Of a DNA stretch of 64,000 nucleotides, positions 18,281 through 44,663 are shown piece after piece. Source of the stretch: Ligustrum vulgare (taxonomy: Eukaryota > Streptophyta > Magnoliopsida > Lamiales > Oleaceae); assembly GCA_963555705.1 (NCBI GenBank), contig OY743189.1, positions 637,501 through 701,500 on the forward strand, read 5' to 3'. The notes beneath the pieces are model-generated. The model was not told the DNA's origin, searched no databases, and saw nothing but the letters and a program-made list of their open reading frames with translations. A program made the translations under genes and the position numbers. Positions within the stretch are counted from its first letter, which is position 1; each line of letters begins with the position of its first letter.

Positions 18281-18993
18281 TCAGCCCTGTACTTTGCAGA
18301 CATTCTCTTGATCATCCTTTAGCCTCCACACTATCAAATTGGCATTTTTATCCCTTGCAATCAGTTCACCATATCCATTATCTTTTTTTCTGGTCATGTG
18401 AAATTTCCAGTCTTCCTCTTCTTTTAGGTCAATCCTTTTGCATTCCTTGAGATGTGAAGGTTGTTTGAGTGCACTATTTATGCTGAAGCTTTGTTGTTTT
18501 TCCTCCACTCTCGGGATTATTTCATTCTTTTCAAAATCCATTAAAGCTCGTCCGGTTGCTAGAAATGATCTTCTTAGGGTCACCGGGATGTTCGACCTTC
18601 TTCTATATCCAAAATGATGAAATCAGCTGGAAAGGTCTGATCTCCAACTTTGATGAGCATATCTTCAATCACTCCATAAGGGTGCTTGAGTGTTCTATCA
18701 GCCAACTGCAGGATTATTGAAGTTGCTTTAGGATCCTCCAATCCTAATTTCCTATAAATAGACAGTGGCATTAAGCTAATTCTTGCTCCAGAATCAATTA
18801 AAGGATTTAAATTGTGTGAATTTCCTATGAAGCAAGGTAAAGTGTGACTACCAGAATCTTTTAGTTTAGGAGGGAGCTTATGCTTTAGGATTGCACTATA
18901 TTCTTCTATCAATGCCACTTCTTTATCTTTTGGCAACTTCCTCTTTTTTGTCAACCTCTCTTTCAGAAACTTAGCATAATTTGGCATTTCCAT
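18281..18993 (-). pseudogene. Element 2: Athila-like aspartic protease, frameshifted
   Basis: This is a retropepsin-type protease on the minus strand. The first piece (18993-18580) contains KLPPKLKDSGS, the active-site block LIDSGARISLMPLSIY with its Asp intact, LQLADRTLKHPYGVIEDMLI and FPADFIILDIEEG. A frameshift near 18585 then moves to the second piece (18583-18281), with RRSFLATGRALMDFE. Beyond this the frame continues for about 80 residues without a recognised domain and stops. No reverse transcriptase follows, so the element was probably non-autonomous or lost pol before its later insertions. Confidence 0.85.
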
Positions 18994-19222: not shown

Positions 19223-20757
19223 TTAATCCCCATCAGTTTTTTTCTTCTTCATAGTGATCTCTGGCAACTGAACTCCACTCCTTGTAGTAATAGCATGAAG
19301 TTGTTCATCCTTTGGCTTCTTTCGAAGCCTTTGGGGGAATGGAATAGGCGGTATGTATGCTTTAACAAGTGGTGCAGCTGTAATTGAAGGTGTCTCAATA
19401 ACTGTGTGATTCAATGTTTCAACTGCAAATACATGTTCCTTAGGATTTTTCTCTATGTTGCTTGGAAAGGTTCTTTGATTTCTGCTTGTTAATGCCACAG
19501 CCATCTGTCCCATTTAATTTTCCAAATTTTTTATTGCTGCCTGTTGATTTTGGAAGTCAGCTTCTATTTTTACGAGAACTTGTTCGATCTTTGCCATGTA
19601 TTATGCAAACATATCTTCCAATGATGGTTTTCTTAGCTATTGTGTTTGTTGATGTTGGAAACCTGGTGGTTTTGCTTGAAAGTTTCCTTCATGGCCCTGA
19701 CTTTGATTGTTAGACCAAGAGAAATTAGGATGATTCCATCACCCTGGATTATATGTGTTGGAATAGGGTTCATTTTGATACTTTTGAAAATTCTGGGTGT
19801 AGCTGACCTCCTCATGTTGCATTCCATGTGTTGAGACTAAAGGACAGCTAGTTGTAATATGATTTGCCCCACATCCTTCACAAATTGGTGTTGGTTCTTG
19901 CACCATGTGCACAGGTCGAGCTAAATTGTCCAGTTTTTGAAATTACTTCCATTTGAGTTGCCAATTGTGTAACTGCATCGATATTGTGGACACCAGATGT
20001 CTTTCTTGGAATCTCCCTTTCAGTAGGCCACATAGCTGGTTCTCCACAATTCTCTCATATAATTTATGTGCTCAATCAATATCTAATTTCATTACTGATC
20101 CCCCTACTGAAGCATCAAGCATTTTGCGGTATTTAGGATGCAATCCTAAAAAAAAATGTAGAACTGAGCATTTTTAGGAATATCCAGATTTGGACACTTT
20201 CGAAAATAGTCCTTAAATCTCTTCCATGCTTCAGGGTAACCCTCAAGGTCACGTTGTTTGAAAGTCTGAACTTCATTTCTGATTTGGAGAACTGGAGATG
20301 GAGGGAAAATTTTCATGGTGAATTTTTGCACCATGTCATTCCAAGATACAATGCTTCCGGGAGCTAATGAGCGTAGCCATTCCCTTGCATTATCTTTTAA
20401 AGTGTGGGGAAACAAACACATTCGAAAAGCATCTGCTGACATCCCTTCGTGATTGACTACATCGCATAGCATTAAAAAAGGCTTGAATGTGCTCATGCGG
20501 ATTTTCAGTCGCCTTACCAAAAACTTGATGTCTTGATGATTTTGAAATAGGTTAATGACATTGGGTCTAAGATGATAATTTGCCTGCTCGAATGGTGGAT
20601 AAAAAATTGTTTGTTGTACAAGGGCGGCCTCGGGATTTACATAATCCCCAACCAGAGCTTGAGCATTTTCGAGAACTGCTTCTAGTTGAATTTGCACTTC
20701 TTGCTCAAGAGAAGTAAGTGGCAATTGATTTTGATTAGGATTTTGATTATTTGCCAT
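19223..20757 (-). pseudogene. gag: Element 2: Athila-like gag, frameshifted
   Basis: The gag starts at ATG 20757 (MANNQ...), about 230 bases inside the PBS. The intact first 203 codons (to 20146) include FYPPFEQANY, RMCLFPHTLKDNAREWLRS, FTMKIFPPSP and AWKRFKDYFRKCPN, all typical of Athila capsid. After a frameshift near 20150 the sequence continues through a CEGCGANHITTSC zinc knuckle (about 19865-19905), then YSNTYNPG and HPNFSWSNN blocks (about 19710-19770) broken by a TGA. The last readable piece is 19513-19223, with PFPQRLRKKP and TTRSGVQLPE. It matches Element 1 gag block by block. Confidence 0.88.
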
Positions 20758-23112: not shown

Positions 23113-23117
23113 TTGAG
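23113..23117. repeat. TSD of the LOG-carrying element, left copy (TTGAG)
   Basis: TTGAG at 23113-23117 is repeated at 32707-32711. The empty site is readable in the 3' LTR of Element 2 at about 8556 ('ggtcattgagtctcttc'). Confidence 0.95.
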
Positions 23118-26100
23118 TGTAGCGATCAAGATTTTTACGCAATTTTATAATTATTTTAATATTTAGAAAATTGTGTCGCTACTATTTCACTCATTGTTTT
23201 GAAATTAACGCCGCGACGAATTCGTCTAGCCAAGTCAAGAAATATCGAATTTGTTCGATTTTAAATTAAAATCCGAATTTCTAAAATTATGTTATTTTAA
23301 TTATTTATTCAAAGTATTATATTCAAAATCTTTCTAAAATCCAAAATTTGCCCACATGTCTTCTTCTTTACACCAAGACAACAATTCTTTACACAATAAC
23401 ATCATCATTTTTGTACAAATAATTTTACACCTAATTCTACACTATCATATTCTATAGTATCAAATCAATACATATTCTTCCCCATCACAACTCACGTCCC
23501 CTACATTTTTCTTCCTTCTTTATCATTCTTTCCACCTCAATATACCATCATCAAAGCATCTTCATCATTATCATTCATACACCCACAAATTCCCTTCAAT
23601 CACACAAAGTATTTCCAACTCATCTTGACCCAATTTCATCATCAAATCCACATTAAACAATTGTGATATTTTCCACCCTCTCACATTACCTAATTCTCCA
23701 CTATTTTCTTAATTAGCCAGCAAAACATATCATTATTATAAATTCTGATATCCTGCACCACCATTTCAGTCGACCAAGTTGGAGAAGAACCACCAACACT
23801 GCCCTCAACCTCCATCAACCTGATTCAATTCATCGATTCATCACCAAGCCTCCACCTACACCCTCTGCTCAACCAAACAACCACCACCTAGTGTCAATTC
23901 AACAACAAACAACCAAACTGCAATTCCCAATCTTCATATCAAACCACTACCATCACCAAACAAAGTTTCAACAATTCTGCTGCTATCAAACACCCAAATT
24001 CACCAAAGCTGTTGATCCACCATTAACGAAGCAAGTCACCATCGGATTCCACCATTTCCACCACCAGCAATGGTCACTGATTTCAATCAACCAAGACATG
24101 CCCGCACCTGCAACCGCCGCAACCAACCGTTCCATCCAACATCACCACTGTCTAACTCAATTCTTTAACCAAATCAAAACCCAAAAGAAAACCGCAAATT
24201 GAGAAGCTCAATCTTACCTCGATCCGCCGAAAAATCGCGATCTAAAGCCGCGACTTCACCTCGGATTCCAGCCCTAATTTCGCACTCAAAATTAGCAACA
24301 AATCCCTCAAACCAGAACCACTTTCTTGTCGCCGTCCACCGCAACCTTCCGGCGATGTTGCGCCGGTGAACTGTCGGCTGTGACACTGGTTTCTTCCATT
24401 TTCCACCGTCAGTCGCAAACCTCCCTCTCTTTCCTTCGATCTGAAATATGGTAGAGAGAGAAGTGAAAGAATCTGATTTTATTTAATATATTTGATTTTC
24501 GAAACTTTCAACTTTAGTCCCTATAGTTTTAAATGTTTCAAAATCAGTCCCTGATGTTTTAAATTGTTTTAATTCAGTCCCTACTGTTTTAAACTCATCC
24601 ATTTCAGCCTCAAAGCTTTAAAATGATTTACTTTTAAGCCCAAGTTTCAAAAGTATTCATTTTAGTCCCTCAACTATCAAAAGTATCTATTTTAGTCCCT
24701 GAACTTTCAAAAGTATTCATTTTAGTCCCTCAACTTTCAAAACATCAATTTTAGTCCTCAAATTATAATTTATCATTTTGAGCTATATATTCGATATACT
24801 AAAGTGACTTATTGGCTAAGACGAAGCGTACGGAGAATTTAAAGAAATTGAAGTCATTCCCGCTCAACTTTGCACTCGTCGGATTTGAGGTAGACTCTCA
24901 CTTATTAATTGATTTAAATTATGATTTCATATAAATGTCATGTGACTTGTGAAGAGTTATTTTTATGAAAGGAAATGAAAATGTATTTTCATGGAAAGAA
25001 CAATGCGTAGACTCGCACTTATTAATTGATTTAAATTATGATTTCATATGAATGTCATGTGACTTGTGAAAGTCAATTTTTAAGAAAAACAAGTATGTTT
25101 TTATGAAAGGTAAATATACCTTATGTTTTTATGAAAAGTAAGTATACCCTATGTTTTTACGATAATGTTTTATATGTTTTGGATCATTGCTATGCACATA
25201 AGAATTCTTACCACCTAAGTTCGGTAGAATTCTGTGTCTCCATAAGTTTATGAGGATTTACCACCTAAGTTCGGTAAAATTCCTGTCTTTCCATATGTTT
25301 ATGAGGATTTACCACCTAAGTTCGGTAAAATTCCTGTCGCGTATGTTTATGAGGATTTAGATCCTATCTTATGTTATGATGGAAATGATCCCTATGAATT
25401 TCATGAATTATGTTTTGGTATACTTACTGTTATTATGATTTTACTACATAAGAATTCTTACCACCTAAGTTCGGTAAAATTCTTATGTTTATGAGGATTT
25501 CGATTTTATCCTATGTTATGATGAAAACTTACTGTTATTATGATTTTACTGCATAAGAATTCTTGCCACCTAAGTTCGGTAAAGTTCTTGTGTCTCTCTA
25601 TGTTTATGAGGATTTCAATCCTATCTTATGTTATGCTTTCAAAAGAAATTATGCTTGGCATAATTAAAATGTTTTTATAAGTATATGGTTTTCAAAGAGC
25701 TGTTTTCAAAGAGCTATTTTCAAAGAGCCTATGATTTGCAAAATATGTCCCGTGCTGTAATGCACAATATGAGTTTTATCAAGAGCTGTTTTATAAAGAA
25801 GCTCTATCAATGCCCGTTTTATAAAGAGCCGGGATTTATGTGTTTAATCATCTTATAAATTAAATTAATTTGCGATGAGTCTACTGAGTATTTCCCCCAT
25901 GAAATACTCACCCTACTTTTTAACAGTTTTGCAGATTTCGGAGACGGTGGCGAGCGATGAATGATGGTGGCAATAATCGTTAAACAGTTGAAAGTTTGAC
26001 GTTAATGGTTTCCGTATTTTCCAAACAATCGAATAATTTAGAGAAGTTCATTTATTTGAGAAATTATGACATTGGCAATTTCTTTACAAAATTAATGGTT

Positions 26101-26271
26101 CGATTTACTATTTCAAATGGTTTCATAAATGTTTCAATTTTATCGGCCATTACAGTTTATTTAATGTTGCCAAAAATGAATTTCAATTATTTCTTCCGCA
26201 AAAATATTATTCGAAAAATTTAGACAGAAAATGACGTAGTGAATCGGGTATACGGAACTCGGGGCGCTACA
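23118..26271 (+). mobile_element. LOG-carrying LTR retrotransposon: 5' LTR (3154 bp)
   Basis: The LTR reads TGTAGCGATC...GGGGCGCTACA, is flanked by the TTGAG TSD, and is repeated at 29553-32706 at exactly the same length. I noticed one substitution (about 25590 against 32025). Its landmarks are a CCA/ATC-rich block at 23460-24200, a run of AGTCCCT repeats at 24510-24760, five CCACCTAAGTTCGGT hairpin units at 25209-25585, and GAGCTxTTTTCAAA-type repeats at 25690-25830. The 103-, 70- and 75-codon open frames recur in both LTRs, have no domain and are not called as genes. Confidence 0.96.
25203..25590 (+). repeat. Hairpin repeat array inside the 3154-bp LTR
   Basis: Five units of the form TTACCACCTAAGTTCGGTAA occur at about 25209, 25258, 25309, 25459 and 25563. 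Each is usually framed by GAATTC-like and AATTC blocks, so that GAATTcTTACC can pair with GGTAAaATTC. Most units end in 'tgtttatgaggat'. The whole array is present again in the other LTR at about 31638-32025. Confidence 0.85.
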
Positions 26272-26274
26272 AGT

Positions 26275-26286
26275 TGGTATCAGAGC
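26275..26286 (+). other. LOG-carrying element: primer binding site (initiator tRNA-Met)
   Basis: TGGTATCAGAGC lies three bases after the 5' LTR end. It matches the initiator tRNA-Met PBS and places the element on the plus strand, opposite to its two cargo reading frames. Confidence 0.93.
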
Positions 26287-27094
26287 TAGTCTGCGTTTCT
26301 GTAGACTGGTAAAATTTTCAAAAAGAATTTTAAGAAATATTTTCCATTATAAGATTTTTATTGATGAAGATTGCCACTGCCATCATTCGTTCCACCAACT
26401 CCGAGGTAAAGAAGTTTATGATGTTTAAAGTTATTTCAGTATTTCGAATACTCATTTTATTGATTTATGAGAAAGAATGAAGAGTATTTCGGATACTTAT
26501 GATTTATGAGAAATAAGAATGTATTTCTTCGAAAATAATGATGTTGTTATGCTTTGTCATAACTTATATGCTTTAATGTATGATTATGAGAAATTTTTTA
26601 AAGAAAACGAGTGTTGAGCATAATGGGAATAATATGATTTTATTGAGAATTAAGTAATGGATATTATGTTGAGTTAATTTATTATGCCTCTATGTTGAAG
26701 AGAAATTTATTATGAAGTTTGGCTTTGTGAATAAATTTTGGGAATATGATTTATGGCATATATTTATAAGTATGAGTAACTTTTGAGCCAATTAAGGTAT
26801 GGAAGGAAGTAATATTGTGATATTGAAAAATATGATTTGAAATTTCTATGTTGAGGAATTATGAATTGAATTATGGGATATTTTGATGATATTGAAGTGT
26901 TGGAATCGTTTTCAATATTTTTAGATCGTTGTGATCAAATGTGGAGTTATTTATTATTGTGAGTTATGAAGTATGCTTATGGTTTGGATAAGTCCAAATT
27001 ACAAGGGAGACTCTATCCAGAATTTTATCATTTGGAATTAAGAGCATAATATGATAAGCATCCACTAAAGGAATTAAGGTTAGACATGCAAGAT
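26287..27094 (+). other. LOG-carrying element: AT-rich non-coding leader
   Basis: About 800 bases of AT-rich sequence rich in ATGATTTATGAGAA-like strings. No gag is seen where one would be expected. The change to sequence of more balanced composition at about 27095 is my estimate of the cargo boundary. Confidence 0.5.
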
Positions 27095-27244
27095 CATTTA
27101 CATCACAAACGAGATTTAGTAGATGATAGCAGAGATTTTATTATTTTCTCATAAGGAGAACACACAAGAGTCACACTGGAAAGGAAATACATGAAACACA
27201 CGAAAGCATAAGAGAAAAACATGGAAAGATCCTCAGAATGAGAG

Positions 27245-27451
27245 ATGTGTTTCCGGAGTAGCCGTATCCTACCACCTCTGATCTTTTGAGGAAATAAAGA
27301 AACCTTCAAAGAGGTGTGTTTCGAGAGTAAGAATACTCCGTAATCTACCACCTGGAACCTTTGAGGTACACACAAGATTTAAACATTAAGGAAATCCTAG
27401 TAAATGGAGGGGTGTCTCGAGAGTGAGAATACTCCGTACTCTACCCCCACC
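27245..27451 (-). repeat. Three hairpin-forming repeats downstream of LOG
   Basis: Related units lie at about 27245-27277, 27311-27353 and 27407-27451. The last two share GTGTxTCGAGAGTxAGAATA, then CTCCGTAxTCTACC, and the first is a more diverged relative. GAGTA and TACTC can pair around a four-base loop in the last two. On the LOG strand they fall 12-220 bases after the stop codon, so they would be in its 3' untranslated region. The ACCACCT string also occurs in the LTR hairpin array, so an origin in the element is possible. Confidence 0.65.
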
Positions 27452-27462
27452 TATTCTAAGAT

Positions 27463-28116
27463 TCACAGAGTTAAGTTTACATTAACCGGACTCCATTTTC
27501 GCTTGATTCCCCTTCCTTGTGACCAATCTATCTTAACCCCTGCTGGATCTTGTATTGAGATATATGACTGCAGCTTATCCAGTAGTTCATCAATAGTAGG
27601 AGCAGAAATAAGAAGCCTTCTGGAAAATGGAGAGATGAATCCCTGTTCCACAGCATAATCAAGAAAGGTTAACAAACCATAAAAGAAATTGTTAACATTC
27701 AGAAGCCCAATAGGCTTAGTATGGAGATCTAGTTGAGCCCATGAGGTAATGTTAAAAATTTCTTCTAAGGTACCAAAACCTCCGGGCATGGCTATAAAGG
27801 CATCAGAACCATATAGCATACAAGTTATGCGTTCATGGATGGATAAGGTTTGAACTTCATGCCCTCGTGTTTTGCCTGCAACATCTACCAAAGGGACAGG
27901 TATGACACCGATTACTTTTGATTTCTCTGCAAGAGCAGATTGGGAAACACAACCCATTAGACCACTGCTACCACCCCCATATACAAGAGTGATACCTTTT
28001 TCCCCCAGTTTCTTTCCAAGATCTACGGCCGCTTCTAGATAACCGAAGCCTTTCCCCACTTTTGATCCACAAAATACACAAATAGTTTTGATTTGTCGAA
28101 GTTTTGATGCTTCCAT
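27463..28116 (-). CDS. LOG-like: LOG-family cytokinin riboside 5'-monophosphate phosphoribohydrolase, intronless, inside an LTR retrotransposon
   Basis: LOG enzymes release active free-base cytokinins from their nucleoside monophosphates by removing ribose 5'-phosphate, usually in the cytosol and nucleus. The 217-residue protein spans the usual LOG length and starts at ATG 28116. It shows CVFCGS (13-18), VYGGGSSGLMG (45-55), the conserved Arg in the HERI block (96), SDAFIAMPGGFGTLEE (104-119; family signature PGGxGTxxE intact), WAQLDLHTKPIGLLNV (126-141), and EQGFISP with SAPTIDELL near the end. Plant LOG genes normally have several introns. This copy has none, so it probably derives from mRNA or from an intronless donor. 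It lies antisense to the retrotransposon, 300 bp downstream of the Cys-rich reading frame, with a TATA-like box at about 28191. All signature residues are present, so activity is plausible but untested. Confidence 0.93.
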   Translation of the reverse strand: MEASKLRQIKTICVFCGSKVGKGFGYLEAAVDLGKKLGEKGITLVYGGGSSGLMGCVSQSALAEKSKVIGVIPVPLVDVAGKTRGHEVQTLSIHERITCMLYGSDAFIAMPGGFGTLEEIFNITSWAQLDLHTKPIGLLNVNNFFYGLLTFLDYAVEQGFISPFSRRLLISAPTIDELLDKLQSYISIQDPAGVKIDWSQGRGIKRKWSPVNVNLTL

Positions 28117-28190
28117 CTTTGATAGTATAGAAGGGAAAACTTACGAAGAAGATGTGATTTTGGGATGCCTGAACTATGAAATATGTTTGG

Positions 28191-28200
28191 CTATTTAAAG
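28191..28200 (-). promoter_or_regulatory. TATA-like box upstream of the LOG-like gene
   Basis: On the minus strand, CTTTAAATAG lies about 75 bases before the LOG ATG, which would leave a leader of roughly 45 nt. The same TTTAAATAG string precedes the Cys-rich frame at 29001-29009. The promoter role is inferred from position and sequence only. Confidence 0.45.
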
Positions 28201-28416
28201 CCGGAAAAATTTACTGTTTTTGATTGATTCTGAAAAAGTAAAGATTTACTTTTGACAAAATCAGCCCACTTTTGAATATTTTTATCGTATCGAGGCTGTC
28301 ACCTTTCGGCGATTTAATATTTTATTTCCAGCTTTATCAAAACTCGAGAAAAGGAAAATATATTTTATTTTCAAAACGCGTGAAAGAAAGCAGCAAAATA
28401 TTTTAAAAGATTTACC

Positions 28417-28968
28417 TTATAACATTGCTGAACTGCCAGAAGCCTCATTTTGTAAAACAGACTGGCAAACAGGATCTTTTGCTATTATATTTTGGAGACT
28501 ATAACGATTTTTGTCCTCGTTAAACTGAGCGTATAAGGAGAGAAGTTCACGTTGTACATAACCACTTGGGTGCGTCTCAAGAGTCAGTCGAATATCATCC
28601 AAAGACTCCTTACTCAGTCCACCCTTTATGAATTCGATTTTATCATCCCGATTTGTAGAAGAATATCCTACTGATTTGCAACGCGTATTACAGTTCCAAC
28701 GAGCACATTTGTAGCAACCACCCAGTCTTTTTGCTCTTCGTTTCTTTGCAAACGTGCTTTTGCCTAAACCAGGCATGTGCTTTGGAAATGTTGATGGTAA
28801 TTCACCAGATAGTCGAACCTTTGCTTCTATCAACCAGCGAACATCTTCTGGAATATCATGAGCCATTAGCAACCTCAATCTTTCGAGCCTTATTCTATAG
28901 ATCTTTCTCAGATCATTCATAGGAAGACTGGAATAATACTTGCGAATGTTAGAAAGAATGATATCCAT
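28417..28968 (-). CDS. Basic Cys-rich protein, resembling plant-virus nucleic-acid-binding proteins
   Basis: This is an intact 183-codon frame if the first ATG, at 28968, is used. The frame is open five codons further upstream, but without an ATG. The N-terminal third is rich in Arg and Leu and probably helical. Residues 68-81 run GKSTFAKKRRAKRL, a nuclear-localisation-like basic stretch. It leads straight into a Cys cluster (Cys 85, 88, 93, 97; C-x2-C-x4-C-x3-C), then KIEFIKGG. This order is the layout of the small Cys-rich nucleic-acid-binding, silencing-related proteins of carlaviruses and their relatives, but the Cys spacing is not the same and the protein is longer. It could instead be a host or element-derived zinc-knuckle protein. 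It shares strand and spacing with LOG, suggesting both came as one cassette. The function is unknown. Confidence 0.6.
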   Translation of the reverse strand: MDIILSNIRKYYSSLPMNDLRKIYRIRLERLRLLMAHDIPEDVRWLIEAKVRLSGELPSTFPKHMPGLGKSTFAKKRRAKRLGGCYKCARWNCNTRCKSVGYSSTNRDDKIEFIKGGLSKESLDDIRLTLETHPSGYVQRELLSLYAQFNEDKNRYSLQNIIAKDPVCQSVLQNEASGSSAML

Positions 28969-29000
28969 TGTTTGATGATTCAACCTCTTCTCAGCATGAA

Positions 29001-29010
29001 CTATTTAAAA
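29001..29010 (-). promoter_or_regulatory. TATA-like box upstream of the Cys-rich frame
   Basis: On the minus strand, TTTTAAATAG lies 33 bases before the ATG at 28968. If it sets transcription about 30 bases downstream, the leader would be only a few bases long. The alternative is that translation starts at a later Met. It shares TTTAAATAG with the box before LOG. Confidence 0.4.
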
Positions 29011-29055
29011 GCGCAAAGGATCTGAGTGAATCCGCGTGATGTTGTGACCAGCAAG

Positions 29056-29552
29056 AAAGCGCAGGATTATTTTAATGAAAAGAGGAGACAAGAAGTAATG
29101 CGCTGTTAAATTTTATCGATAAAGGAGATTTGATTGGAGATTTGGAATATTTTCTTGGATTATGGGTACTGATATTTTGTTTTAATAATGATAATCTTGG
29201 TTTAATGTGATGATACGTGGAAAGTAAAATGAGTACCGTATTGAATCAGAATTCATACGTATATACAAGTGAAAGAAATATTTTGCAGGAAATGTGGTGA
29301 CATTTAAGTATAGAATCTTAGTTTTGGGAGATATTTGTTTACTGAATTTTGAGTTACAAATATTGGAAAGATAAGTTGATGATATTATGTTGATATGTTT
29401 GGGTATATTACGTAGAGAAAATATTCAGGTAATTCTTTGATTATTTTGAGAATATTCGATGATAAGAAGAAGAGATTTTGATTAAGTATTCAGAAATTAT
29501 AAGACCAAGTAAGTTTAATTTCGAGGACGAAATTATTTTAAGAGGGTAAGAT
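29056..29552 (+). other. LOG-carrying element: 3' interior with GAGGACGAAATT block and polypurine tract
   Basis: AT-rich, non-coding sequence. It ends in TTTCGAGGACGAAATTATTT, then the polypurine tract AAGAGGGTAAGA, directly before the 3' LTR. The GAGGACGAAATT end is characteristic of Tekay/Del-type Ty3/Gypsy elements and is also found at 41450-41479 in the three-LTR array. That suggests the parental family even though gag and pol are missing. Confidence 0.65.
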
Positions 29553-32500
29553 TGTAGCGATCAAGATTTTTACGCAATTTTATAATTATTTTAATATTTA
29601 GAAAATTGTGTCGCTACTATTTCACTCATTGTTTTGAAATTAACGCCGCGACGAATTCGTCTAGCCAAGTCAAGAAATATCGAATTTGTTCGATTTTAAA
29701 TTAAAATCCGAATTTCTAAAATTATGTTATTTTAATTATTTATTCAAAGTATTATATTCAAAATCTTTCTAAAATCCAAAATTTGCCCACATGTCTTCTT
29801 CTTTACACCAAGACAACAATTCTTTACACAATAACATCATCATTTTTGTACAAATAATTTTACACCTAATTCTACACTATCATATTCTATAGTATCAAAT
29901 CAATACATATTCTTCCCCATCACAACTCACGTCCCCTACATTTTTCTTCCTTCTTTATCATTCTTTCCACCTCAATATACCATCATCAAAGCATCTTCAT
30001 CATTATCATTCATACACCCACAAATTCCCTTCAATCACACAAAGTATTTCCAACTCATCTTGACCCAATTTCATCATCAAATCCACATTAAACAATTGTG
30101 ATATTTTCCACCCTCTCACATTACCTAATTCTCCACTATTTTCTTAATTAGCCAGCAAAACATATCATTATTATAAATTCTGATATCCTGCACCACCATT
30201 TCAGTCGACCAAGTTGGAGAAGAACCACCAACACTGCCCTCAACCTCCATCAACCTGATTCAATTCATCGATTCATCACCAAGCCTCCACCTACACCCTC
30301 TGCTCAACCAAACAACCACCACCTAGTGTCAATTCAACAACAAACAACCAAACTGCAATTCCCAATCTTCATATCAAACCACTACCATCACCAAACAAAG
30401 TTTCAACAATTCTGCTGCTATCAAACACCCAAATTCACCAAAGCTGTTGATCCACCATTAACGAAGCAAGTCACCATCGGATTCCACCATTTCCACCACC
30501 AGCAATGGTCACTGATTTCAATCAACCAAGACATGCCCGCACCTGCAACCGCCGCAACCAACCGTTCCATCCAACATCACCACTGTCTAACTCAATTCTT
30601 TAACCAAATCAAAACCCAAAAGAAAACCGCAAATTGAGAAGCTCAATCTTACCTCGATCCGCCGAAAAATCGCGATCTAAAGCCGCGACTTCACCTCGGA
30701 TTCCAGCCCTAATTTCGCACTCAAAATTAGCAACAAATCCCTCAAACCAGAACCACTTTCTTGTCGCCGTCCACCGCAACCTTCCGGCGATGTTGCGCCG
30801 GTGAACTGTCGGCTGTGACACTGGTTTCTTCCATTTTCCACCGTCAGTCGCAAACCTCCCTCTCTTTCCTTCGATCTGAAATATGGTAGAGAGAGAAGTG
30901 AAAGAATCTGATTTTATTTAATATATTTGATTTTCGAAACTTTCAACTTTAGTCCCTATAGTTTTAAATGTTTCAAAATCAGTCCCTGATGTTTTAAATT
31001 GTTTTAATTCAGTCCCTACTGTTTTAAACTCATCCATTTCAGCCTCAAAGCTTTAAAATGATTTACTTTTAAGCCCAAGTTTCAAAAGTATTCATTTTAG
31101 TCCCTCAACTATCAAAAGTATCTATTTTAGTCCCTGAACTTTCAAAAGTATTCATTTTAGTCCCTCAACTTTCAAAACATCAATTTTAGTCCTCAAATTA
31201 TAATTTATCATTTTGAGCTATATATTCGATATACTAAAGTGACTTATTGGCTAAGACGAAGCGTACGGAGAATTTAAAGAAATTGAAGTCATTCCCGCTC
31301 AACTTTGCACTCGTCGGATTTGAGGTAGACTCTCACTTATTAATTGATTTAAATTATGATTTCATATAAATGTCATGTGACTTGTGAAGAGTTATTTTTA
31401 TGAAAGGAAATGAAAATGTATTTTCATGGAAAGAACAATGCGTAGACTCGCACTTATTAATTGATTTAAATTATGATTTCATATGAATGTCATGTGACTT
31501 GTGAAAGTCAATTTTTAAGAAAAACAAGTATGTTTTTATGAAAGGTAAATATACCTTATGTTTTTATGAAAAGTAAGTATACCCTATGTTTTTACGATAA
31601 TGTTTTATATGTTTTGGATCATTGCTATGCACATAAGAATTCTTACCACCTAAGTTCGGTAGAATTCTGTGTCTCCATAAGTTTATGAGGATTTACCACC
31701 TAAGTTCGGTAAAATTCCTGTCTTTCCATATGTTTATGAGGATTTACCACCTAAGTTCGGTAAAATTCCTGTCGCGTATGTTTATGAGGATTTAGATCCT
31801 ATCTTATGTTATGATGGAAATGATCCCTATGAATTTCATGAATTATGTTTTGGTATACTTACTGTTATTATGATTTTACTACATAAGAATTCTTACCACC
31901 TAAGTTCGGTAAAATTCTTATGTTTATGAGGATTTCGATTTTATCCTATGTTATGATGAAAACTTACTGTTATTATGATTTTACTGCATAAGAATTCTTG
32001 CCACCTAAGTTCGGTAAAGTTCTTTTGTCTCTCTATGTTTATGAGGATTTCAATCCTATCTTATGTTATGCTTTCAAAAGAAATTATGCTTGGCATAATT
32101 AAAATGTTTTTATAAGTATATGGTTTTCAAAGAGCTGTTTTCAAAGAGCTATTTTCAAAGAGCCTATGATTTGCAAAATATGTCCCGTGCTGTAATGCAC
32201 AATATGAGTTTTATCAAGAGCTGTTTTATAAAGAAGCTCTATCAATGCCCGTTTTATAAAGAGCCGGGATTTATGTGTTTAATCATCTTATAAATTAAAT
32301 TAATTTGCGATGAGTCTACTGAGTATTTCCCCCATGAAATACTCACCCTACTTTTTAACAGTTTTGCAGATTTCGGAGACGGTGGCGAGCGATGAATGAT
32401 GGTGGCAATAATCGTTAAACAGTTGAAAGTTTGACGTTAATGGTTTCCGTATTTTCCAAACAATCGAATAATTTAGAGAAGTTCATTTATTTGAGAAATT

Positions 32501-32706
32501 ATGACATTGGCAATTTCTTTACAAAATTAATGGTTCGATTTACTATTTCAAATGGTTTCATAAATGTTTCAATTTTATCGGCCATTACAGTTTATTTAAT
32601 GTTGCCAAAAATGAATTTCAATTATTTCTTCCGCAAAAATATTATTCGAAAAATTTAGACAGAAAATGACGTAGTGAATCGGGTATACGGAACTCGGGGC
32701 GCTACA
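29553..32706 (+). mobile_element. LOG-carrying LTR retrotransposon: 3' LTR (3154 bp)
   Basis: This is the exact-length partner of 23118-26271, followed by the TTGAG TSD. Near identity over 3.15 kb shows a very recent insertion, or less likely recent gene conversion. Total element length is 9589 bp. Confidence 0.96.
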
Positions 32707-32910
32707 TTGAGTCTCTTCAATTTGCAATTAAGTCATTGGCATCTTTGTTCTTCATTTCGTTCCCCGTCTCATTTGTGAATTGTTTGCAATTTAGTCCTCG
32801 AGTTTTGAAGTTCGCCCTTTTTGTACGGTTTTCGTCCATTTTCTTCATATTGCCTCCAAAAGCATCCAAAATTCAATTTTTCCTAAAATAAATAAAATCA
32901 ACACATAATT

Positions 32911-34630: not shown

Positions 34631-36541
34631 TTAATAAGTATATTTTATACACTTACTTATATCCTATAGTAGGATTTTATTTATTTATTTAAGAAAATTT
34701 GCTATTTATTTAGTTAGTATTTGTATATTTTCAGGAATAACCCAAAAGTCGAAAAAACAATGGAATTGAAGCCAAAATCAAGCAATTGGATTATAAAAGA
34801 GTCAAAGTGTGCAAATGAAGAGTGGATGAAGTAGATCAAGGACTCAATTGGAATAATATTTGAAGAAGAAATCAAATTTGGAAGAAATCAGAAGTTCAGG
34901 GGCTAAATTGCAACAATCGAAAGTTGGAGAACTTGTTGTGCAATTAAAAGATAGGGATCAACTTGTAGCACTTCAAAAGATGAAAATTGGATCTTTTCGA
35001 ATAACCGTTCGGTCGCACCAATTAAAGGCGCACGGTCGCACGACCCACTCTGCAGGAAATTGAGACCGATTTTGTAATACCGTCGCATGGTTTATAACTG
35101 TGCGGTAGCACGGTCAATTTCTTGACCGTCTGGTGGGCGTTTTGCGCCAATTTCAGCATACTTCTTCCCCAAGTAACCTAAAGTTCGAGGCAACCTATAT
35201 ATACATGACTTGAGGGATGAAATTAAAGGTTCCTAATTGTCATATTTCATGTCAAAATGCTGTCAAATTGTTGGGGGATCCATTGAAGGCCAAATTCAAG
35301 ATTGAAGAACAACGATCAAGAAGATGAACGTGGTGACTTCTATTCATATTTCTTGTGAATTATCTTTAATCATATTTCTTGTGTTAGGATTATGATGAAA
35401 TTTTATTTATTGGTTCCATATTTTGACATATTATTTAATTTACGCAGTTTATGAGTTTGATGCAATTAAATAATGTTTTTATTATTATGCAATTATTTGG
35501 CCATCTTTTGCATGATTGACTTGATGTTTTTCTATGTTCGAAAAAGTTGGAATTCATTAGATATTATTTAATTGTCACAAAGTCATATAGGGGATAGAAA
35601 TACACCCATATGCTTTGTGTCATCCTTGAGAGTGTTCATGGATCCTTTAATGCTTTTCTATTTGTTTAATTGTCATAAAAATATAGTCAATTTATATTTA
35701 AAAAAAGTTTTTTATGCATCGCTCGAAAGGGGACTTAAATAATTTTCAAATTGCTGGGGGGGTCCATTGAAGGCCAAATTCAAGATTGAAGAACAAGGGT
35801 CAAGAAGATGAACGTGGTGACTTCTATTCATATTTCTTGTGAATTATCTTTAATCATATTTCTAGGCTATATTTCTTGTATTAGGATTATGATGAAATTT
35901 TAATTATTGGTTCCATATTTTGACATATTATTTAATTTACGCAGTTTATGGGTTTGATGCAATTAAATAATATTTTTATTATTATGCAATTATTTGGCCA
36001 TCTTTTGCATGATTGACTTGATGTTTTTCTATGTTCGAAAAAGTTGGAATTCATTAGATATTATTTAATTGTCACAAAGTCATATGGGGGATAGAAATAC
36101 ACTCATATGCTTTGTGTCATCCTTGAGAGTGTTCATGGATCCTTTAATGCTTTTCTATTTGTTTAATTGTCATAAAAATGTAGTCAATTTGTATTTAAAA
36201 AAAGTTTTTTATGCATCGCTCGAAAGGGGACTTAAATAATTTTAGGAACCGGGATATTCAAAACTCGTGAATTGTATTTAAATAATTTGGTCAATATATG
36301 GATGATTTGGTAAAAATGGATTCATAATTCTAGCATGCTTTTTTTTCATAGTTTTAAATCAAGGTTTCTTATTTTATTAAGCTTAGTTTTTAAAACAAAA
36401 TTCTCAAATTCAAAGTTTTTCTCGTTCCGATTAAGGTTAATAGTATAAAATACAATTTACAACAATCCTTATGGGATCGATACTTGGACTCACGTCTATT
36501 ATATTACTTATGGGACCCGTGCACTTGTGGTTTAGTGAATA
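34631..36541 (+). mobile_element. Element 1: 3' LTR with internal duplication
   Basis: The LTR follows the polypurine tract TTTGGGGG and aligns with 2466-3610. A segment of about 485 bp (about 35267-35748) is repeated in tandem at about 35749-36237 with scattered differences. The 5' LTR holds one copy only. CGGTCGCACG palindromes are at 35005-35130. Confidence 0.75.
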
Positions 36542-38306: not shown

Positions 38307-40062
38307 TGTAATAACCCGAATTTTACTAATCAAAAAGTCAAAGAATTAACTAGTCAAAGTCGAATTTTCAAATGATCAAGTCAAATAAAGACCTTATTTT
38401 GAATAAATGATTTTTATGGGCTCTATTTTACAGTTATAAGTATTTAAAGGACATAAATGAGATAAATTAGAACATTAAGGATTTAATTGTCAATTGATAG
38501 AATTAAGGGACTAAATGTTATGTAATATGAAGGTTTGGTGACTTGGCATGTAATATTACCATATTTTAACCCCTAAAATTGGTATTAGAACCCATTTTTC
38601 AGGGAATTTTCGGGAGAGGCAAAGAAAGAGAGAGAGTTCGAGAGACCGAAAAAAAAAAAAAAGAGGAGCCGACGACGTCATGGGCTACAAGAGTTCAATT
38701 TCTTCTTCTTCATGAGGTAAAGGAGATGATGTGGAGATTTAAAGAGGCCTATCAGCTGTGCTAGATTTCAATCAATAACTCTGTGAGTGGAAAAGTTATT
38801 CTTTTAAAAACTTAAAAGAATTCACGTTATTCAAGTTTTCTATTCACAATGATTTTCTACAAGTTACAAATAATTTTTAAATTACTTGCTTTTAGCATGA
38901 TTATCAAAACAAATGTTTTAAAATTAAGTTTGTTTATCATGATAACTCTTTTTACCATGTATTACGAGCATGATTGGTTAAGTTGAGTACGTATGATTTC
39001 AAAATCACCAGAAGTACCCGATGTGGTTGTCTGTTCTTGTGTTAGTGCACGGAGGGGGCCTTGGGCCCGTGTACTAGCGGATATTATTTGAGATCTTAAG
39101 GCTCTGTCACGGAGGGGGCCTATGGCCCGTGTTCAGATGATCTTAAGATCCACTCTTATGCACGGAGGGGGCCTATGGCCAGTGTGTAAGGGTGCATATA
39201 TGAGGTCTTTGGGACCCACTTTTGTACCCAGAGGGTCTTTGGGCCGGGTACGGAGGTGCTTAGCAGTCTACGCGCGTATGACTAGATACAGATTTCAGAT
39301 GATTTAGTTGGGTACCTTTGGTGTGATTTTCTTATGTATTACAGTTTATCAGTTATGCTACAGATGATTATTCCACGATCTTTATGATTATCCTTAGCAT
39401 GTATGATTTTGTTTAAAGTGGCAAAAACTTATGAAATAAATTATGTTTTCATAAATGGTTTATAAAATACTTTTATTTCAGAAATTCCACTCACTGAGTC
39501 ACAAGCTCATGTTTTTCCCCACCTTTACAGTATAGGAAGAAAAATAAGAGTTTCAGCAGCATCGAAGGAGCCTTCCCAGCTCTGGAGGAGCTTCGTAACA
39601 TTGTCATTTTTAGGAGTTACTTTGGTAAGCTCTTAGGATACATATTCTAGGAAGATGCATTGGAATATGCAGTTATTCTATATAAGTAATATACTTTATC
39701 AGGAATGTGTCTGATGATGATGTATTTTGGATCATGTATATATAAAGAAGTGAGTTAAGAATTTTAGTTATTATATTATGTCAATTGTCTTGGTTGGAAG
39801 ATTTGAAAAGTGATATAGTTATTTATGATTGCATGTTTGAGGATTTGCTATTGTTTTACAGGTTGATTAAGTCAAAATTATAGAGTAGACTTTGTCAAAA
39901 TGTTATAAATTTCTATGGGATCAAAATTATGAAAAAGGAAATATTGAAAGTCAAAAGAAAGTCAAGTTTGCCTTGGTGGTGGGTCCAACATCTAGTTGTG
40001 ACTTGCCATCGGCACACGTCACGTTTCAGGTCCAGTGGAGTGATCGGGGACGGGTCGTGACA
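38307..40062 (+). mobile_element. Three-LTR array: LTR 1 (1756 bp)
   Basis: The LTR reads TGTAATAACCCG...GGGTCGTGACA and is followed by a PBS at 40065. It contains four GGAGGGGGCC-type hairpin repeats at 39045-39250 and an A14 run at about 38649. The small open frames (for example 39122-39307) recur in all copies, lack domains and are LTR sequence. Confidence 0.93.
39045..39255 (+). repeat. CACGGAGGGGGCC hairpin repeats in the LTR
   Basis: Four units (about 39049, 39109, 39160 and 39228) share a CGGAGGGGGCC..GGCC.GTGT plan with inverted GGCC/GGCC and CACGG/CGTG arms. They lie in a similar relative position to the CCACCTAAGTTCGGT hairpins of the 3154-bp LTR. They recur at 42228-42435 and 45413-45620. 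Confidence 0.75.
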
Positions 40063-41479
40063 AATGGTATCAGAGCATGGTTAAGTTGGGAGAGGTAAAA
40101 TATGAAGGGAAGGAGCTTGGAAATAATTGGATATGCAATTTTGATTCTTTGGGATGTTCAAAAGGGAGATATGATAAATTTAAGAATATAATCATTTTGT
40201 GATCTTATTAGAATCTGTGAGATTCAATATTTGAGGTCATGTGGTATGTCAACGATTATGTAACCAGATGAGAATGTTATAAGTATATATTTGATTGTGT
40301 AATGATATATTTGGGTTTCGAAATGAATTAGTTGTTCTATGACCATTTATGGGATTTTTGCATGTATTTGGAGGAAATGTCTTGTATACATCTTGGGTTA
40401 TGTTGTATATATATATTTTCAAGGATAAATATTGGTTAATTTTTTGATATATGCCTAGATGGTGACAATTACAAGAGAGAACCATGATTGAATAAAGAAG
40501 ATAAATGATTCTAGTATCATTGGAAATTTATGAAAAGTGATTTTTATATGGTTTATGGTGGATGATATGTGTTATATATTTGGTTATTTATATGATATAT
40601 GATTGTCTGGGGAAAATGCCAGCTATTATTAATGGAAGATTTATTTGAAGTTGAGATTTTAGTATATATGAAATCTTATGTATGTTGATATATGATAGTT
40701 CATGTGATAAATATGATGACTATTATTTTATGATATGATTAAATTTCGAGGTCATACGATATGGTAATAGAAAGTTAAGTAATGGTATGAGTGTTCTATA
40801 GAAAAATAGTGTGATGATATACTTCAGTTATTGAGTTAATTAATCTTCTCTTGATCATATATTGGGTTAGTGTGAAATAGGACTTATGATTGGGAAGTCC
40901 CATTTTTAGTCATAAGATAAGAGGAATTTATTGAAATTTTTGGGTGATGCAGTTCTGGTTATGTATTGTCGGTTATACTTTAGATATGAGTAAAGTATTT
41001 TATTCTTATTAAGATTTATTTTCCATGGGATATGCATAGAGTGAAGTTTTGGGAGAACATTGAAAGTTGCATCTTGAACTTTAAATTAGGAAGTATTGAG
41101 TTTTTCTTAAATTTGATAAACTGAAAAATTGAGAACGTTGGGTTTTAATGTTATTAATGAGATAGCAAAAGGCTTATTTGGTGTTAAAGGAATGTAATCA
41201 CTAATGATAAAGCTTAGTAAGAGGGTATCAGATTTAAACTATGTCCTAAGGTCACTAACATTGTTCAAGTAAGATCGACTTAAAACAGTTGATAAGAGTT
41301 TGACTTAAGAATTGAAGTAAGATAGGAAAGATTGGGATCTATGTCCAGTTAAAGGTTCTGGGAGAATTATTTTGATGAAAAAGCTAATATGATTAAGTGG
41401 GTCATATATGTGTTTGATTTATTCGTATGCTCATAGCTTAAGGAAATTTCAAGGACGAAATTCTTTGAAGGGGTGAGAT
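40063..41479 (+). mobile_element. Three-LTR array: interior 1 (1417 bp, non-coding)
   Basis: The interior starts with the PBS TGGTATCAGAGC (40065-40076, initiator tRNA-Met) and ends with CAAGGACGAAATTC and a polypurine tract GAAGGGGTGAGA at 41467-41478. There is no gag or pol, and no open frame longer than about 80 codons. This makes the family a non-autonomous Gypsy derivative. Confidence 0.85.
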
Positions 41480-43246
41480 TGTAATAACCCGAATTTTACT
41501 AGTAAAAAAGTCAAAGAATTAACTAGTCAAAGTCGAATTTTCAAATGGTCAAGTCAAATAAGGACCTTATTTTGAATAAATGATTTTTATGGGCTCTATT
41601 TTACAGTTATAAGTATTTAAAGGACATAAATGAGATAAATTAGAACATTAAGGATTTAATTGTCAATTGATAGAATTAAGGGACTAAATGTTATGTAATA
41701 TGAAGGTTTGGTGACTTGGCATGTAATATTACCATATTTTAACCCCTAAAATTGGTATTAGAACCCATTTTTCAGGGAATTTTCGGGAGAGGCAAAGAAA
41801 GAGAGAGAGTTCGAGAGACCGAAAAAAAAAAGAAAAAAAAAAAAAAGAGGAGCCGACGACGTCATGGGCTACAAGAGTTCAATTTCTTCTTCTTCATGAG
41901 GTAAAGGAGATGATGTGGAGATTTAAAGAGGCCTATCAGCTGTGCTAGATTTCAATCAATAACTCTGTGAGTGGAAAAGTTATTCTTTTAAAAACTTAAA
42001 AGAATTCACGTTATTCAAGTTTTCTATTCACAATGATTTTCTACAAGTTACAAATAATTTTTAAATTACTTGCTTTTAGCATGATTATCAAAACAAATGT
42101 TTTAAAATTAAGTTTGTTTATCATGATAACTCTTTTTACCATGTATTACGAGCATGATTGGTTAAGTTGAGTACGTATGATTTCAAAATCACCAGAAGTA
42201 CCCGATGTGGTTGTCTGTTCTTGTGTTAGTGCACGGAGGGGGCCTTGGGCCCGTGTACTAGCGGATATTATTTGAGATCTTAAGGCTCTGTCACGGAGGG
42301 GGCCTATGGCCCGTGTTCAGATGATCTTAAGATCCACTCTTATGCACGGAGGGGGCCTATGGCCAGTGTGTAAGGGTGCATATATGAGGTCTTTGGGACC
42401 CACTTTTGTACCCAGAGGGTCTTTGGGCCGGGTACGGAGGTGCTTAGCAGTCTACGCGCGTATGACTAGATACAGATTTCAGATGATTTAGTTGGGTACC
42501 TTTGGTGTGATTTTCTTATGTATTACAGTTTATCAGTTATGCTACAGATGATTATTCCACGATCTTTATGATTATCCTTAGCATGTATGATTTTGTTTAA
42601 AGTGGCAAAAACTTATGAAATAAATTATGTTTTCATAAATGGTTTATAAAATACTTTTATTTCAGAAATTCCACTCACTGAGTCACAAGCTCATGTTTTT
42701 CCCCACCTTTACAGTATAGGAAGAAAAATAAGAGTTTCAGCAGCATCGAAGGAGCCTTCCCAGCTCTGGAGGAGCTTCGTAACATTGTCATTTTTAGGAG
42801 TTACTTTGGTAAGCTCTTAGGATACATATTCTAGGAAGATGCATTGGAATATGCAGTTATTCTATATAAGTAATATACTTTATCAGGAATGTGTCTGATG
42901 ATGATGTATTTTGGATCATGTATATATAAAGAAGTGAGTTAAGAATTTTAGTTATTATATTATGTCAATTGTCTTGGTTGGAAGATTTGAAAAGTGATAT
43001 AGTTATTTATGATTGCATGTTTGAGGATTTGCTATTGTTTTACAGGTTGATTAAGTCAAAATTATAGAGTAGACTTTGTCAAAATGTTATAAATTTCTAT
43101 GGGATCAAAATTATGAAAAAGGAAATATTGAAAGTCAAAAGAAAGTCAAGTTTGCCTTGGTGGTGGGTCCAACATCTAGTTGTGACTTGCCATCGGCACA
43201 CGTCACGTTTCAGGTCCAGTGGAGTGATCGGGGACGGGTCGTGACA
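41480..43246 (+). mobile_element. Three-LTR array: LTR 2 (1767 bp, chimeric)
   Basis: It is 11 bp longer than LTR 1, fully explained by the A-rich run (A10-G-A14 against A14). At its 5' end it shares the LTR 3 variants (ACTAGTAAAAAAG, AATGGTCAAG, AATAAGGACC and the G inside the A run). At its 3' end it shares the LTR 1 variants ('cactgagtca', 'cagctctggaggagc'). It is therefore a recombinant of the two. Confidence 0.9.
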
Positions 43247-44663
43247 AATGGTATCAGAGCATGGTTAAGTTGGGAGAGGTAAAATATGAAGGGAAGGAGC
43301 TTGGAAATAATTGGATATGCAATTTTGATTCTTTGGGATGTTCAAAAGGGAGATATGATAAATTTAAGAATATAATCATTTTGTGATCTTATTAGAATCT
43401 GTGAGATTCAATATTTGAGGTCATGTGGTATGTCAACGATTATGTAACCAGATGAGAATGTTATAAGTATATATTTGATTGTGTAATGATATATTTGGGT
43501 TTCGAAATGAATTAGTTGTTCTATGACCATTTATGGGATTTTTGCATGTATTTGGAGGAAATGTCTTGTATACATCTTGGGTTATGTTGTATATATATAT
43601 TTTCAAGGATAAATATTGGTTAATTTTTTGATATATGCCTAGATGGTGACAATTACAAGAGAGAACCATGATTGAATAAAGAAGATAAATGATTCTAGTA
43701 TCATTGGAAATTTATGAAAAGTGATTTTTATATGGTTTATGGTGGATGATATGTGTTATATATTTGGTTATTTATATGATATATGATTGTCTGGGGAAAA
43801 TGCCAGCTATTATTAATGGAAGATTTATTTGAAGTTGAGATTTTAGTATATATGAAATCTTATGTATGTTGATATATGATAGTTCATGTGATAAATATGA
43901 TGACTATTATTTTATGATATGATTAAATTTCGAGGTCATACGATATGGTAATAGAAAGTTAAGTAATGGTATGAGTGTTCTATAGAAAAATAGTGTGATG
44001 ATATACTTCAGTTATTGAGTTAATTAATCTTCTCTTGATCATATATTGGGTTAGTGTGAAATAGGACTTATGATTGGGAAGTCCCATTTTTAGTCATAAG
44101 ATAAGAGGAATTTATTGAAATTTTTGGGTGATGCAGTTCTGGTTATGTATTGTCGGTTATACTTTAGATATGAGTAAAGTATTTTATTCTTATTAAGATT
44201 TATTTTCCATGGGATATGCATAGAGTGAAGTTTTGGGAGAACATTGAAAGTTGCATCTTGAACTTTAAATTAGGAAGTATTGAGTTTTTCTTAAATTTGA
44301 TAAACTGAAAAATTGAGAACGTTGGGTTTTAATGTTATTAATGAGATAGCAAAAGGCTTATTTGGTGTTAAAGGAATGTAATCACTAATGATAAAGCTTA
44401 GTAAGAGGGTATCAGATTTAAACTATGTCCTAAGGTCACTAACATTGTTCAAGTAAGATCGACTTAAAACAGTTGATAAGAGTTTGACTTAAGAATTGAA
44501 GTAAGATAGGAAAGATTGGGATCTATGTCCAGTTAAAGGTTCTGGGAGAATTATTTTGATGAAAAAGCTAATATGATTAAGTGGGTCATATATGTGTTTG
44601 ATTTATTCGTATGCTCATAGCTTAAGGAAATTTCAAGGACGAAATTCTTTGAAGGGGTGAGAT
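43247..44663 (+). mobile_element. Three-LTR array: interior 2 (1417 bp, non-coding)
   Basis: It has the same length as interior 1 and I noticed no difference in sequence. The PBS is at 43249-43260 and the polypurine tract at 44651-44662. The duplication is therefore recent. Confidence 0.88.

What the first reader, a model, noticed from the sequence alone, without database searches (positions are those of the whole stretch)
23118..32706. A very young LTR retrotransposon carries an intact LOG cytokinin-activating gene on its antisense strand
Seen: two 3154-bp LTRs with one noticed difference, the TSD TTGAG, a tRNA-Met PBS, a polypurine tract, no gag or pol, and a complete 217-codon intronless LOG frame with PGGFGTLEE intact. 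Known: LOG enzymes make active cytokinin in one step, and plant LOG genes usually have introns. Inference: a captured or virus-borne LOG is being moved by a non-autonomous Gypsy element and might supply cytokinin activity where it is expressed. Gene capture by LTR elements is known, but I am not aware of a described LOG cargo.
Basis: partly seen in the sequence, partly recalled or inferred. Interest (0 to 1): 0.9.

Follow-up and report, generated by a model that had tools for sequence, protein, structure and literature searches.

The report
Retrotransposon carrying viral and cytokinin-enzyme genes
An abundant, recently active plant jumping element carries, read backwards, two intact genes, one related to a plant-virus nucleic-acid-binding protein and one derived from the cytokinin-activating enzyme LOG but with an altered pocket and an added tail, which suggests that plant retrotransposons keep an old virus-like toolkit for acting on their host.

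Summary
The element is real: two 3154-bp LTRs with one difference, TSD TTGAG, tRNA-Met-type PBS, no gag-pol, intact antisense LOG frame. LOG domains in plant Gypsy elements are on record (PMC9289625); the NABP partner I did not find in print. It is no lone capture: 150 of 150 scored LOG hits here lack stops, NABP is intact in 30 of 30 copies chosen by LOG score, dN/dS 0.20 for NABP and 0.04 for LOG. P0001-like LOGs form one clade apart from 27 host LOGs. Most keep the catalytic Arg/Glu but replace two charged pocket residues; 90 of 121 end in a basic pair plus LxLxL, the EAR consensus, against 0 of 120 host LOGs. A sister family in this genome has NABP-LOG in sense, at one locus behind reverse transcriptase and integrase; its LOGs mostly lost the catalytic residues while tails LDLEL[RK]L persist. 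Most likely an accessory module acting on host nuclei; cytokinin production is unproven.

The parts
23113..23117 (.). target-site duplication TTGAG, left copy
23118..26271 (+). 5' LTR, 3154 bp, TGTAGCG...CGCTACA
   Evidence: one mismatch to the 3' LTR
26275..26286 (+). primer-binding site TGGTATCAGAGC (initiator tRNA-Met type, recalled)
27463..28116 (-). LOG-derived ORF, 217 codons; R96 and E119 kept, pocket residues I93 H94 I97 N122 W126, tail GIKRKWSPVNVNLTL
   Evidence: these residues and the tail are identical in the 30 copies aligned, the window's own included
28191..28199 (-). TTTAAATAG, TATA-like, 83 nt before the LOG ATG
   Evidence: invariant in the 30 copies aligned; promoter role inferred
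28417..28968 (-). NABP ORF, 183 codons: PF05515 Viral_NABP and PF01623 Carla_C4; KKRR basic patch and CYKCARWNCNTRC
   Evidence: intact in the 30 copies aligned
29001..29009 (-). TTTAAATAG, TATA-like, 41 nt before the NABP ATG
   Evidence: invariant in the 30 copies aligned; promoter role inferred
29517..29549 (+). reads NFEDEIILRG-stop: taken as a remnant of the end of a Tekay/Del-type chromovirus pol (family recalled, no call names it)
   Evidence: 18-mer exact here; 0.12 matches with up to 3 mismatches expected per window, 7 found; also in L039 and L041
29539..29551 (+). polypurine tract before the 3' LTR
29553..32706 (+). 3' LTR, 3154 bp
32707..32711 (.). target-site duplication TTGAG, right copy

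Best explanation
A high-copy, recently active, non-autonomous LTR retrotransposon (chromovirus/Tekay-type ends, lineage recalled) that carries an antisense two-gene accessory module, NABP then LOG-derived protein. Shown: both frames intact across the copies sampled and under purifying selection; the pair occurs in two element families of this genome and in three Orobanche gene models; at one locus it lies in sense behind reverse transcriptase and integrase. Inferred: the module lived downstream of pol in Athila-like elements and was taken over, inverted, by the non-autonomous element; each gene is made from its own short promoter; NABP, like related carlavirus proteins, binds nucleic acid in the nucleus and dampens silencing or changes transcription; the LOG-derived protein has become a nuclear nucleotide-binding protein whose tail recruits a TOPLESS-type corepressor, with hydrolase activity perhaps changed in the window family and probably lost in the sister family. 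Together they would help transcription and spread of the element.
For: NABP Pfam matches above cut-offs; Carla_C4 in 34 of 34 and Viral_NABP in 33 of 34 aligned relatives. NABP intact 30/30 in copies chosen by LOG score (window plus L002-L030); dN/dS among copies 0.20 and, against the L031 homologue from another source, 0.285/1.365 = 0.21. LOG dN/dS 0.04 (copies were chosen by LOG score, so biased low); with a host-LOG query 144 of 150 scored hits have no stop. Orobanche models P0019, P0021, P0024 match both NABP and LOG. L050-L058, nine of the ten best hits with the L031-type NABP: NABP then LOG on the same strand; L060 adds RVT_1, RNase H and integrase zinc-binding domains upstream on that strand. 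Tail: basic pair plus terminal LxLxL in 90 of 121 against 0 of 120 host LOGs; shuffles of 117 tails gave mean 2.1, maximum 8, against 89 observed. Tail disordered, core confident in the model. Sister family: Arg position S in 8 of 9, Glu position Q in 8 of 9 (a stop in the ninth), tails ending LDLEL[RK]L in 6 of the 8 printed.
Against: No expression, localisation or binding data. The window protein's own tail is VNVNLTL, not a strict LxLxL, and its cluster is one of 7 of 24 (70% identity) without a strict tail. Copies chosen with a host-LOG query are less tidy: of 8 opened, LOG has a stop in 2, and NABP matches over 175 or 176 residues in 5, in two pieces in 1, and only over its first 73-74 residues in 2. 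Singleton NABP variants show weaker constraint (pN/pS 0.44). Sister-family copies look near-neutral (dN/dS 0.91 and 1.06), so their catalytic losses could belong to a decaying lineage. No virus carrying this NABP was found and the direction of transfer is unknown. The autonomous partner with the same LTR was not found. Pol was seen upstream in 1 of 10 sister-type loci at 1.5 kb flank, and L061, the second opened at 10 kb, showed no match to the L031 pol in about 7 kb upstream.
Confidence: 0.5

Rival explanations
1. The LOG gene is an active cytokinin phosphoribohydrolase: the element raises active cytokinin in cells where it is transcribed and so favours dividing or meristematic cells, with NABP adding growth-promoting transcription as reported for one carlavirus protein.
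For: PGGFGTLEE, R96, E118, E119 and W126 kept in P0001; fold close to AtLOG3 (2a33_B, TM 0.77 on the query, 0.96 on the target); CVB p12 reported as a transcription factor inducing hyperplasia (PMC12172455 passages).
Against: Two of the five residues proposed as the prenyl pocket (Lys100 and Glu125 of CgLOG) are replaced in nearly the whole clade: K in 1 of 117 and E in 0 of 117, against 114 of 114 host LOGs with each. Alanine at the AMP-site and catalytic residues tested in CgLOG gave almost complete loss of activity, S19A excepted. The sister family has mostly lost the catalytic residues.
Confidence: 0.25
2. The antisense region works as RNA: convergent transcripts make double-stranded RNA that regulates the element, and the proteins are incidental.
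For: Antisense promoters and such regulation are discussed for plant antisense extra ORFs (PMC7264820 passages).
Against: Protein-level selection (dN/dS 0.20 and 0.04) and 30/30 intact frames; the module also occurs in sense in another family.
Confidence: 0.07
3. Neutral hitch-hiking cargo: a recent burst from one master copy keeps frames open by youth alone.
For: Copies are young; the sister family evolves near-neutrally.
Against: Excess of synonymous variants: NABP 32 of 60, binomial P 1e-7; LOG 33 of 39, P 2e-15; frames and motifs conserved at about 50-75% protein identity between sources.
Confidence: 0.08

Closest known systems
LOG-domain (YgdH) extra ORFs in plant Ty3/Gypsy elements: Citrus and Populus consensuses in PMC9289625 (abstract, section 12 and passages read); Steinbauerova et al. 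2011, two Athila-like elements with LOGL4 similarity (abstract recalled, paper not held)
   Same: LOG-like ORF in a Gypsy-type element; a sense relative lies behind pol in this genome
   Different: What I read mentions no NABP partner, tail motif, pocket change or antisense non-autonomous high-copy carrier
Antisense aORF elements Grande, RIRE2, Retand (PMC7264820 and PMC11963269, passages read)
   Same: Conserved antisense ORFs of unknown function in Gypsy elements
   Different: The Retand ORFs mostly carry a TRP28 domain; the review finds no similarity of such ORFs to viruses, whereas here a virus-family protein is present
Carlavirus/allexivirus/mandarivirus cysteine-rich NABP (PMC12172455, passages read)
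   Same: Basic patch plus Cys cluster; Pfam Carla_C4 and Viral_NABP
   Different: In retrotransposons, next to pol or LOG; no RNA-virus genome around it
Orchid Gypsy elements with an AlkB domain (PMC9289625)
   Same: Plant Gypsy element that fixed a domain also found in flexiviruses
   Different: Different protein; activity shown in vitro there, not here
EAR-motif effectors such as Jsi1, XopD and PopP2 (PMC8126959, abstract and passages read)
   Same: Short LxLxL or DLNxxP motif in a foreign protein acting on plants
   Different: Here in a transposon protein; TOPLESS binding untested

Membership tests
LONELY GUY phosphoribohydrolase | PGGxGTxxE motif and LOG fold | tested here: met
LONELY GUY phosphoribohydrolase | catalytic Arg and Glu (Arg99, Glu122 of CgLOG) | tested here: met
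   R96 and E119 in P0001; 109 and 116 of 117 in the clade. Not met in the sister family L050-L058: S for Arg in 8 of 9, Q for Glu in 8 of 9 and a stop in one
LONELY GUY phosphoribohydrolase | prenyl-pocket residues Met96, His97, Lys100, Glu125, Trp129 of CgLOG | tested here: not met
   P0001 has I93 H94 I97 N122 W126: two of five kept
LONELY GUY phosphoribohydrolase | cytokinin nucleotide hydrolysis | not testable with these tools
   needs an enzyme assay
Plant host LOG genes | branches within host LOGs | tested here: not met
   65 P0001-like and 27 host LOGs on separate sides, supports 100/97 and 99/98; hosts are AtLOG3-like hits plus AtLOG8 only
Viral NABP (PF05515, PF01623) | score above Pfam cut-offs | tested here: met
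   30.7 against 23 and 27 against 20.9 bits
Viral NABP (PF05515, PF01623) | encoded by an RNA virus | tested here: not met
   lies between LTRs; no relative in the viral contigs scanned
EAR repression motif | LxLxL or DLNxxP | tested here: inconclusive
   strict terminal LxLxL in 91 of 121 of the clade; P0001 itself VNVNLTL, loose match only; TOPLESS binding not testable here
Tekay/Del chromovirus | chromodomain pol | tested here: not met
   no pol ORF in the element; only PBS and a short C-terminal remnant, so descent is inferred and the lineage recalled
Athila-like element with a gene downstream of pol in sense | extra ORF after integrase on the same strand | tested here: met
   in relatives L031 (integrase, NABP) and L060 (RT, RNase H, integrase zinc domain, NABP, LOG), not in the window element; the lineage name Athila is recalled

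The most novel reading that the evidence does not exclude
Plant retrotransposons maintain an ancient mobile counter-defence cassette built from an RNA-virus nucleic-acid-binding protein and a LOG enzyme turned into a corepressor-recruiting nuclear effector, shared between Athila-like and chromovirus-derived elements and kept in both orientations.
Probability: 0.4. Interest if true: 0.92.

Novelty: new variant of a known kind. Interest (0 to 1): 0.78.

Why it matters
The function of the extra ORFs of plant retrotransposons is an open question (PMC7264820). Here two such ORFs belong to recognisable families and give precise, testable predictions: silencing suppression by NABP, TOPLESS binding through the LOG-derived tail, altered substrate or no activity of the LOG pocket. 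If right, plant LTR elements carry virus-like accessory genes, and some plant genes annotated LOG or LOGL (for example the Diospyros and Populus LOGL10 entries, which fall in this clade) may be element genes, which matters for annotation and cytokinin genetics.

Tried and rejected
Rejected: recent retrocopy of a host LOG (tree); assembly artefact. Not supported: a virus-borne pair (viral contigs were scanned with P0002 and the NABP alignment A1 only, not with LOG). Led nowhere: plasmid search; a NABP structure model (mean pLDDT 58.8); LOG in the MAG that holds L031; the related LTR at 62597 onward, which looks solo; a search for the autonomous partner sharing the LTR (not completed); the host's own LOG genes in this genome, none recognised among the 150 scored hits (8 of them opened, all element-type). 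Plant names come from database labels. 'Element-type LOG' means P0001-like hits: an element context was seen for copies of this genome, and a NABP link for three Orobanche models, not for each of the 121. Equal contig lengths of P0015/P0142 (8723) and P0016/P0170 (4511) suggest linkage, but the contigs were not read. The host panel is the 120 best AtLOG3 hits, so other plant LOG subfamilies are hardly sampled; 6 of the 120 have LxLxL somewhere, none at the end.

Full report
OBSERVATION. The element stands as described: LTRs 23118-26271 and 29553-32706, one mismatch in 3154, TSD TTGAG, PBS TGGTATCAGAGC, purine tract, no gag-pol. At recalled plant rates of about 1e-8 per site per year one difference means an age of the order of ten thousand years. 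The LOG frame 27463-28116 (-) is intact.

THE MISSED GENE. A second antisense ORF, 28417-28968, lies upstream of LOG in its transcription sense. It passes Pfam's cut-offs for Viral_NABP (30.7 bits, cut-off 23) and Carla_C4 (27, cut-off 20.9). A protein search gave 346 relatives at E<=10, of which the best 120 were listed; the first is 72% identical over 93% of the query; where a plant is named it is Orobanche, Striga, Populus, Acer or Xanthoceras. Of 34 aligned relatives (window included) all match Carla_C4 and 33 match Viral_NABP. Three Orobanche gene models match NABP and LOG in one protein.

A HIGH-COPY FAMILY. In the window's own genome (1.38 Gb) LOG gave 9408 first-look candidates and NABP 8795; the 150 scored of each are 99-100% identical without stops. 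Candidate numbers are not verified copy counts. Many copies in these lists sit head-to-tail, mostly about 6.2-7.2 kb apart (read by eye). With a host LOG as query, 150 scored hits were about 50% identical to it, 144 without a stop; the 8 opened are element-type, 91-93% identical to P0001, all with a NABP match beside LOG, but LOG has a stop in 2, and NABP is covered over 175 or 176 residues in 5, in two pieces in 1 and over 73-74 residues in 2. Four further copies opened at 10 kb have LTR pairs with 0, 1, 2 and 1 mismatches in the parts compared, besides gap columns in two.

SELECTION. In 30 copies (window plus L002-L030, chosen by LOG score) NABP is intact in 30 and LOG in 30. Mean dN/dS over 431 pairs is 0.20 for NABP and 0.04 for LOG; the LOG figure is biased by the choice of copies, the NABP figure less so. 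Shared NABP variants: 23 synonymous, 14 not; singletons 9 and 14. Against the L031 NABP from another source dN/dS is 0.21, with dS 1.37. TTTAAATAG, 41 nt before NABP and 83 nt before LOG, is invariant in the 30.

LOG CLADE. A tree of 65 P0001-like LOGs, 27 plant host LOGs and 2 bacterial LOGs puts the first two groups on separate sides (100/97 and 99/98). The bacterial root is long and host subfamilies are thinly sampled, so whether the clade arose inside or beside plant LOGs stays open. In 117 against 114 sequences the catalytic Arg and Glu are kept in 109 and 116 of 117, but CgLOG Lys100, present in 114 of 114 hosts, is L, I or M in 114 of 117 and K in 1, and CgLOG Glu125, present in 114 of 114 hosts, is never E. 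These two belong to the five residues proposed to hold the prenyl group; Met96 is kept in 100 of 117, His97 in 37, Trp129 in 108. In that paper alanine at the residues tested nearly abolished activity, S19A excepted (PMC4979012 section 6). The tail is new: terminal LxLxL in 91 of 121, a basic pair in the last 22 residues in 112, both in 90; hosts 0, 6 and 0 of 120; by clusters at 70% identity, 17 of 24 have the strict tail in at least one member. LxLxL or DLNxxP is the EAR consensus that binds TOPLESS corepressors (PMC8126959 passages). The window protein ends VNVNLTL, a weaker form and one of the 7 clusters without the strict tail, identical in the 30 copies. The AlphaFold model has a confident core and a disordered tail 200-217 and matches AtLOG3 best.

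TWO HOMES FOR ONE MODULE. L031, a plant-like contig in a bacterial bin, has an integrase ORF followed by NABP on the same strand. With that NABP as query, nine of the ten best hits in the window's genome (L050-L058) are a different family with LOG after NABP on the same strand; the tenth, L059, resembles the window's NABP and showed no LOG match. L060, 10 kb around L055, shows reverse transcriptase, RNase H, a split integrase with a direct repeat between its parts (a nested insertion, inferred), NABP and LOG in that order and strand. L061, around L053, has no match to the L031 pol in about 7 kb upstream. In this family the catalytic Arg position is S in 8 of 9 and R in L056; the Glu position is Q in 8 of 9 and a stop in L058; G113 is D in 8; tails end LDLEL[RK]L in 6 of the 8 that could be printed, of which L051 and L052 are neighbours and may be one duplicated copy. 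These copies look near-neutral among themselves (dN/dS 0.91 and 1.06), while window against L053 gives 0.16 for NABP and 0.27 for LOG with dS above 1.3; so the losses date to their common source. The window element instead ends in a remnant reading NFEDEIILRG-stop, typical (recalled) of Tekay/Del pol, with a tRNA-Met PBS: the same module sits inverted in another kind of element.

MECHANISM. Shown: pairing, intactness, selection, pocket and tail changes. Inferred: antisense expression from own promoters, NABP acting like flexivirus cysteine-rich proteins (silencing suppressor, in one case transcription factor; PMC12172455 passages), and corepressor recruitment by the LOG-derived tail. Antisense transcription against the element's own RNA would make double-stranded RNA, so a silencing suppressor in the module would make sense; this is conjecture.

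NOVELTY. Extra antisense ORFs and LOG domains in plant Gypsy elements are on record (PMC7264820, PMC9289625; Steinbauerova 2011 recalled). The NABP-LOG module, its tail and pocket, its presence in both orientations, and loss of catalytic residues in one family I did not find in print; the searches were for LOG, lysine-decarboxylase, YgdH, NABP and carlavirus terms with retrotransposons, none for the tail; the library lacks most subscription journals and all preprints.

Noticed in passing
window 38307-45950: Second non-autonomous array: three LTR-like copies of about 1.28 kb with two internal parts, each internal part ending in AATTTCAAGGACGAAATT (41445, 44629), the same pol-end remnant with one change.
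   Followed up: partly
window 62597-64000 and L037 1-1264: A related LTR, 73-79% similar in matched parts, apparently solo, running beyond the window end.
   Followed up: partly
G000, for example C14:29533901-29568724 and C23:10311325-10338630: Head-to-tail arrays of six and five NABP copies at near-constant spacing (6.86 and 6.70 kb), presumably LTR-internal-LTR-internal chains.
   Followed up: no
L038-L041: The internal region is 94-98% identical to the window's while matched LTR pieces range from about 70 to 99% and differ in their middle parts, as if one internal module rode on several LTR variants.
   Followed up: no
window 27240-27460, minus strand: Three imperfect repeats after the LOG stop, GGTGG..TACGG..TA.TC..; by eye a similar string lies between the integrase and NABP in L031 (about 1678-1700). 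Possibly an RNA signal.
   Followed up: no
L031: Plant-like retrotransposon contig inside a Nomurabacteria MAG record: probably contamination.
   Followed up: partly
window 35263-36243: Two tandem copies of about 0.49 kb, 95% alike.
   Followed up: no
window 18580-18993 and 20146-20757, minus: Protease-like (below Pfam cut-off) and gag ORFs of another LTR element.
   Followed up: no
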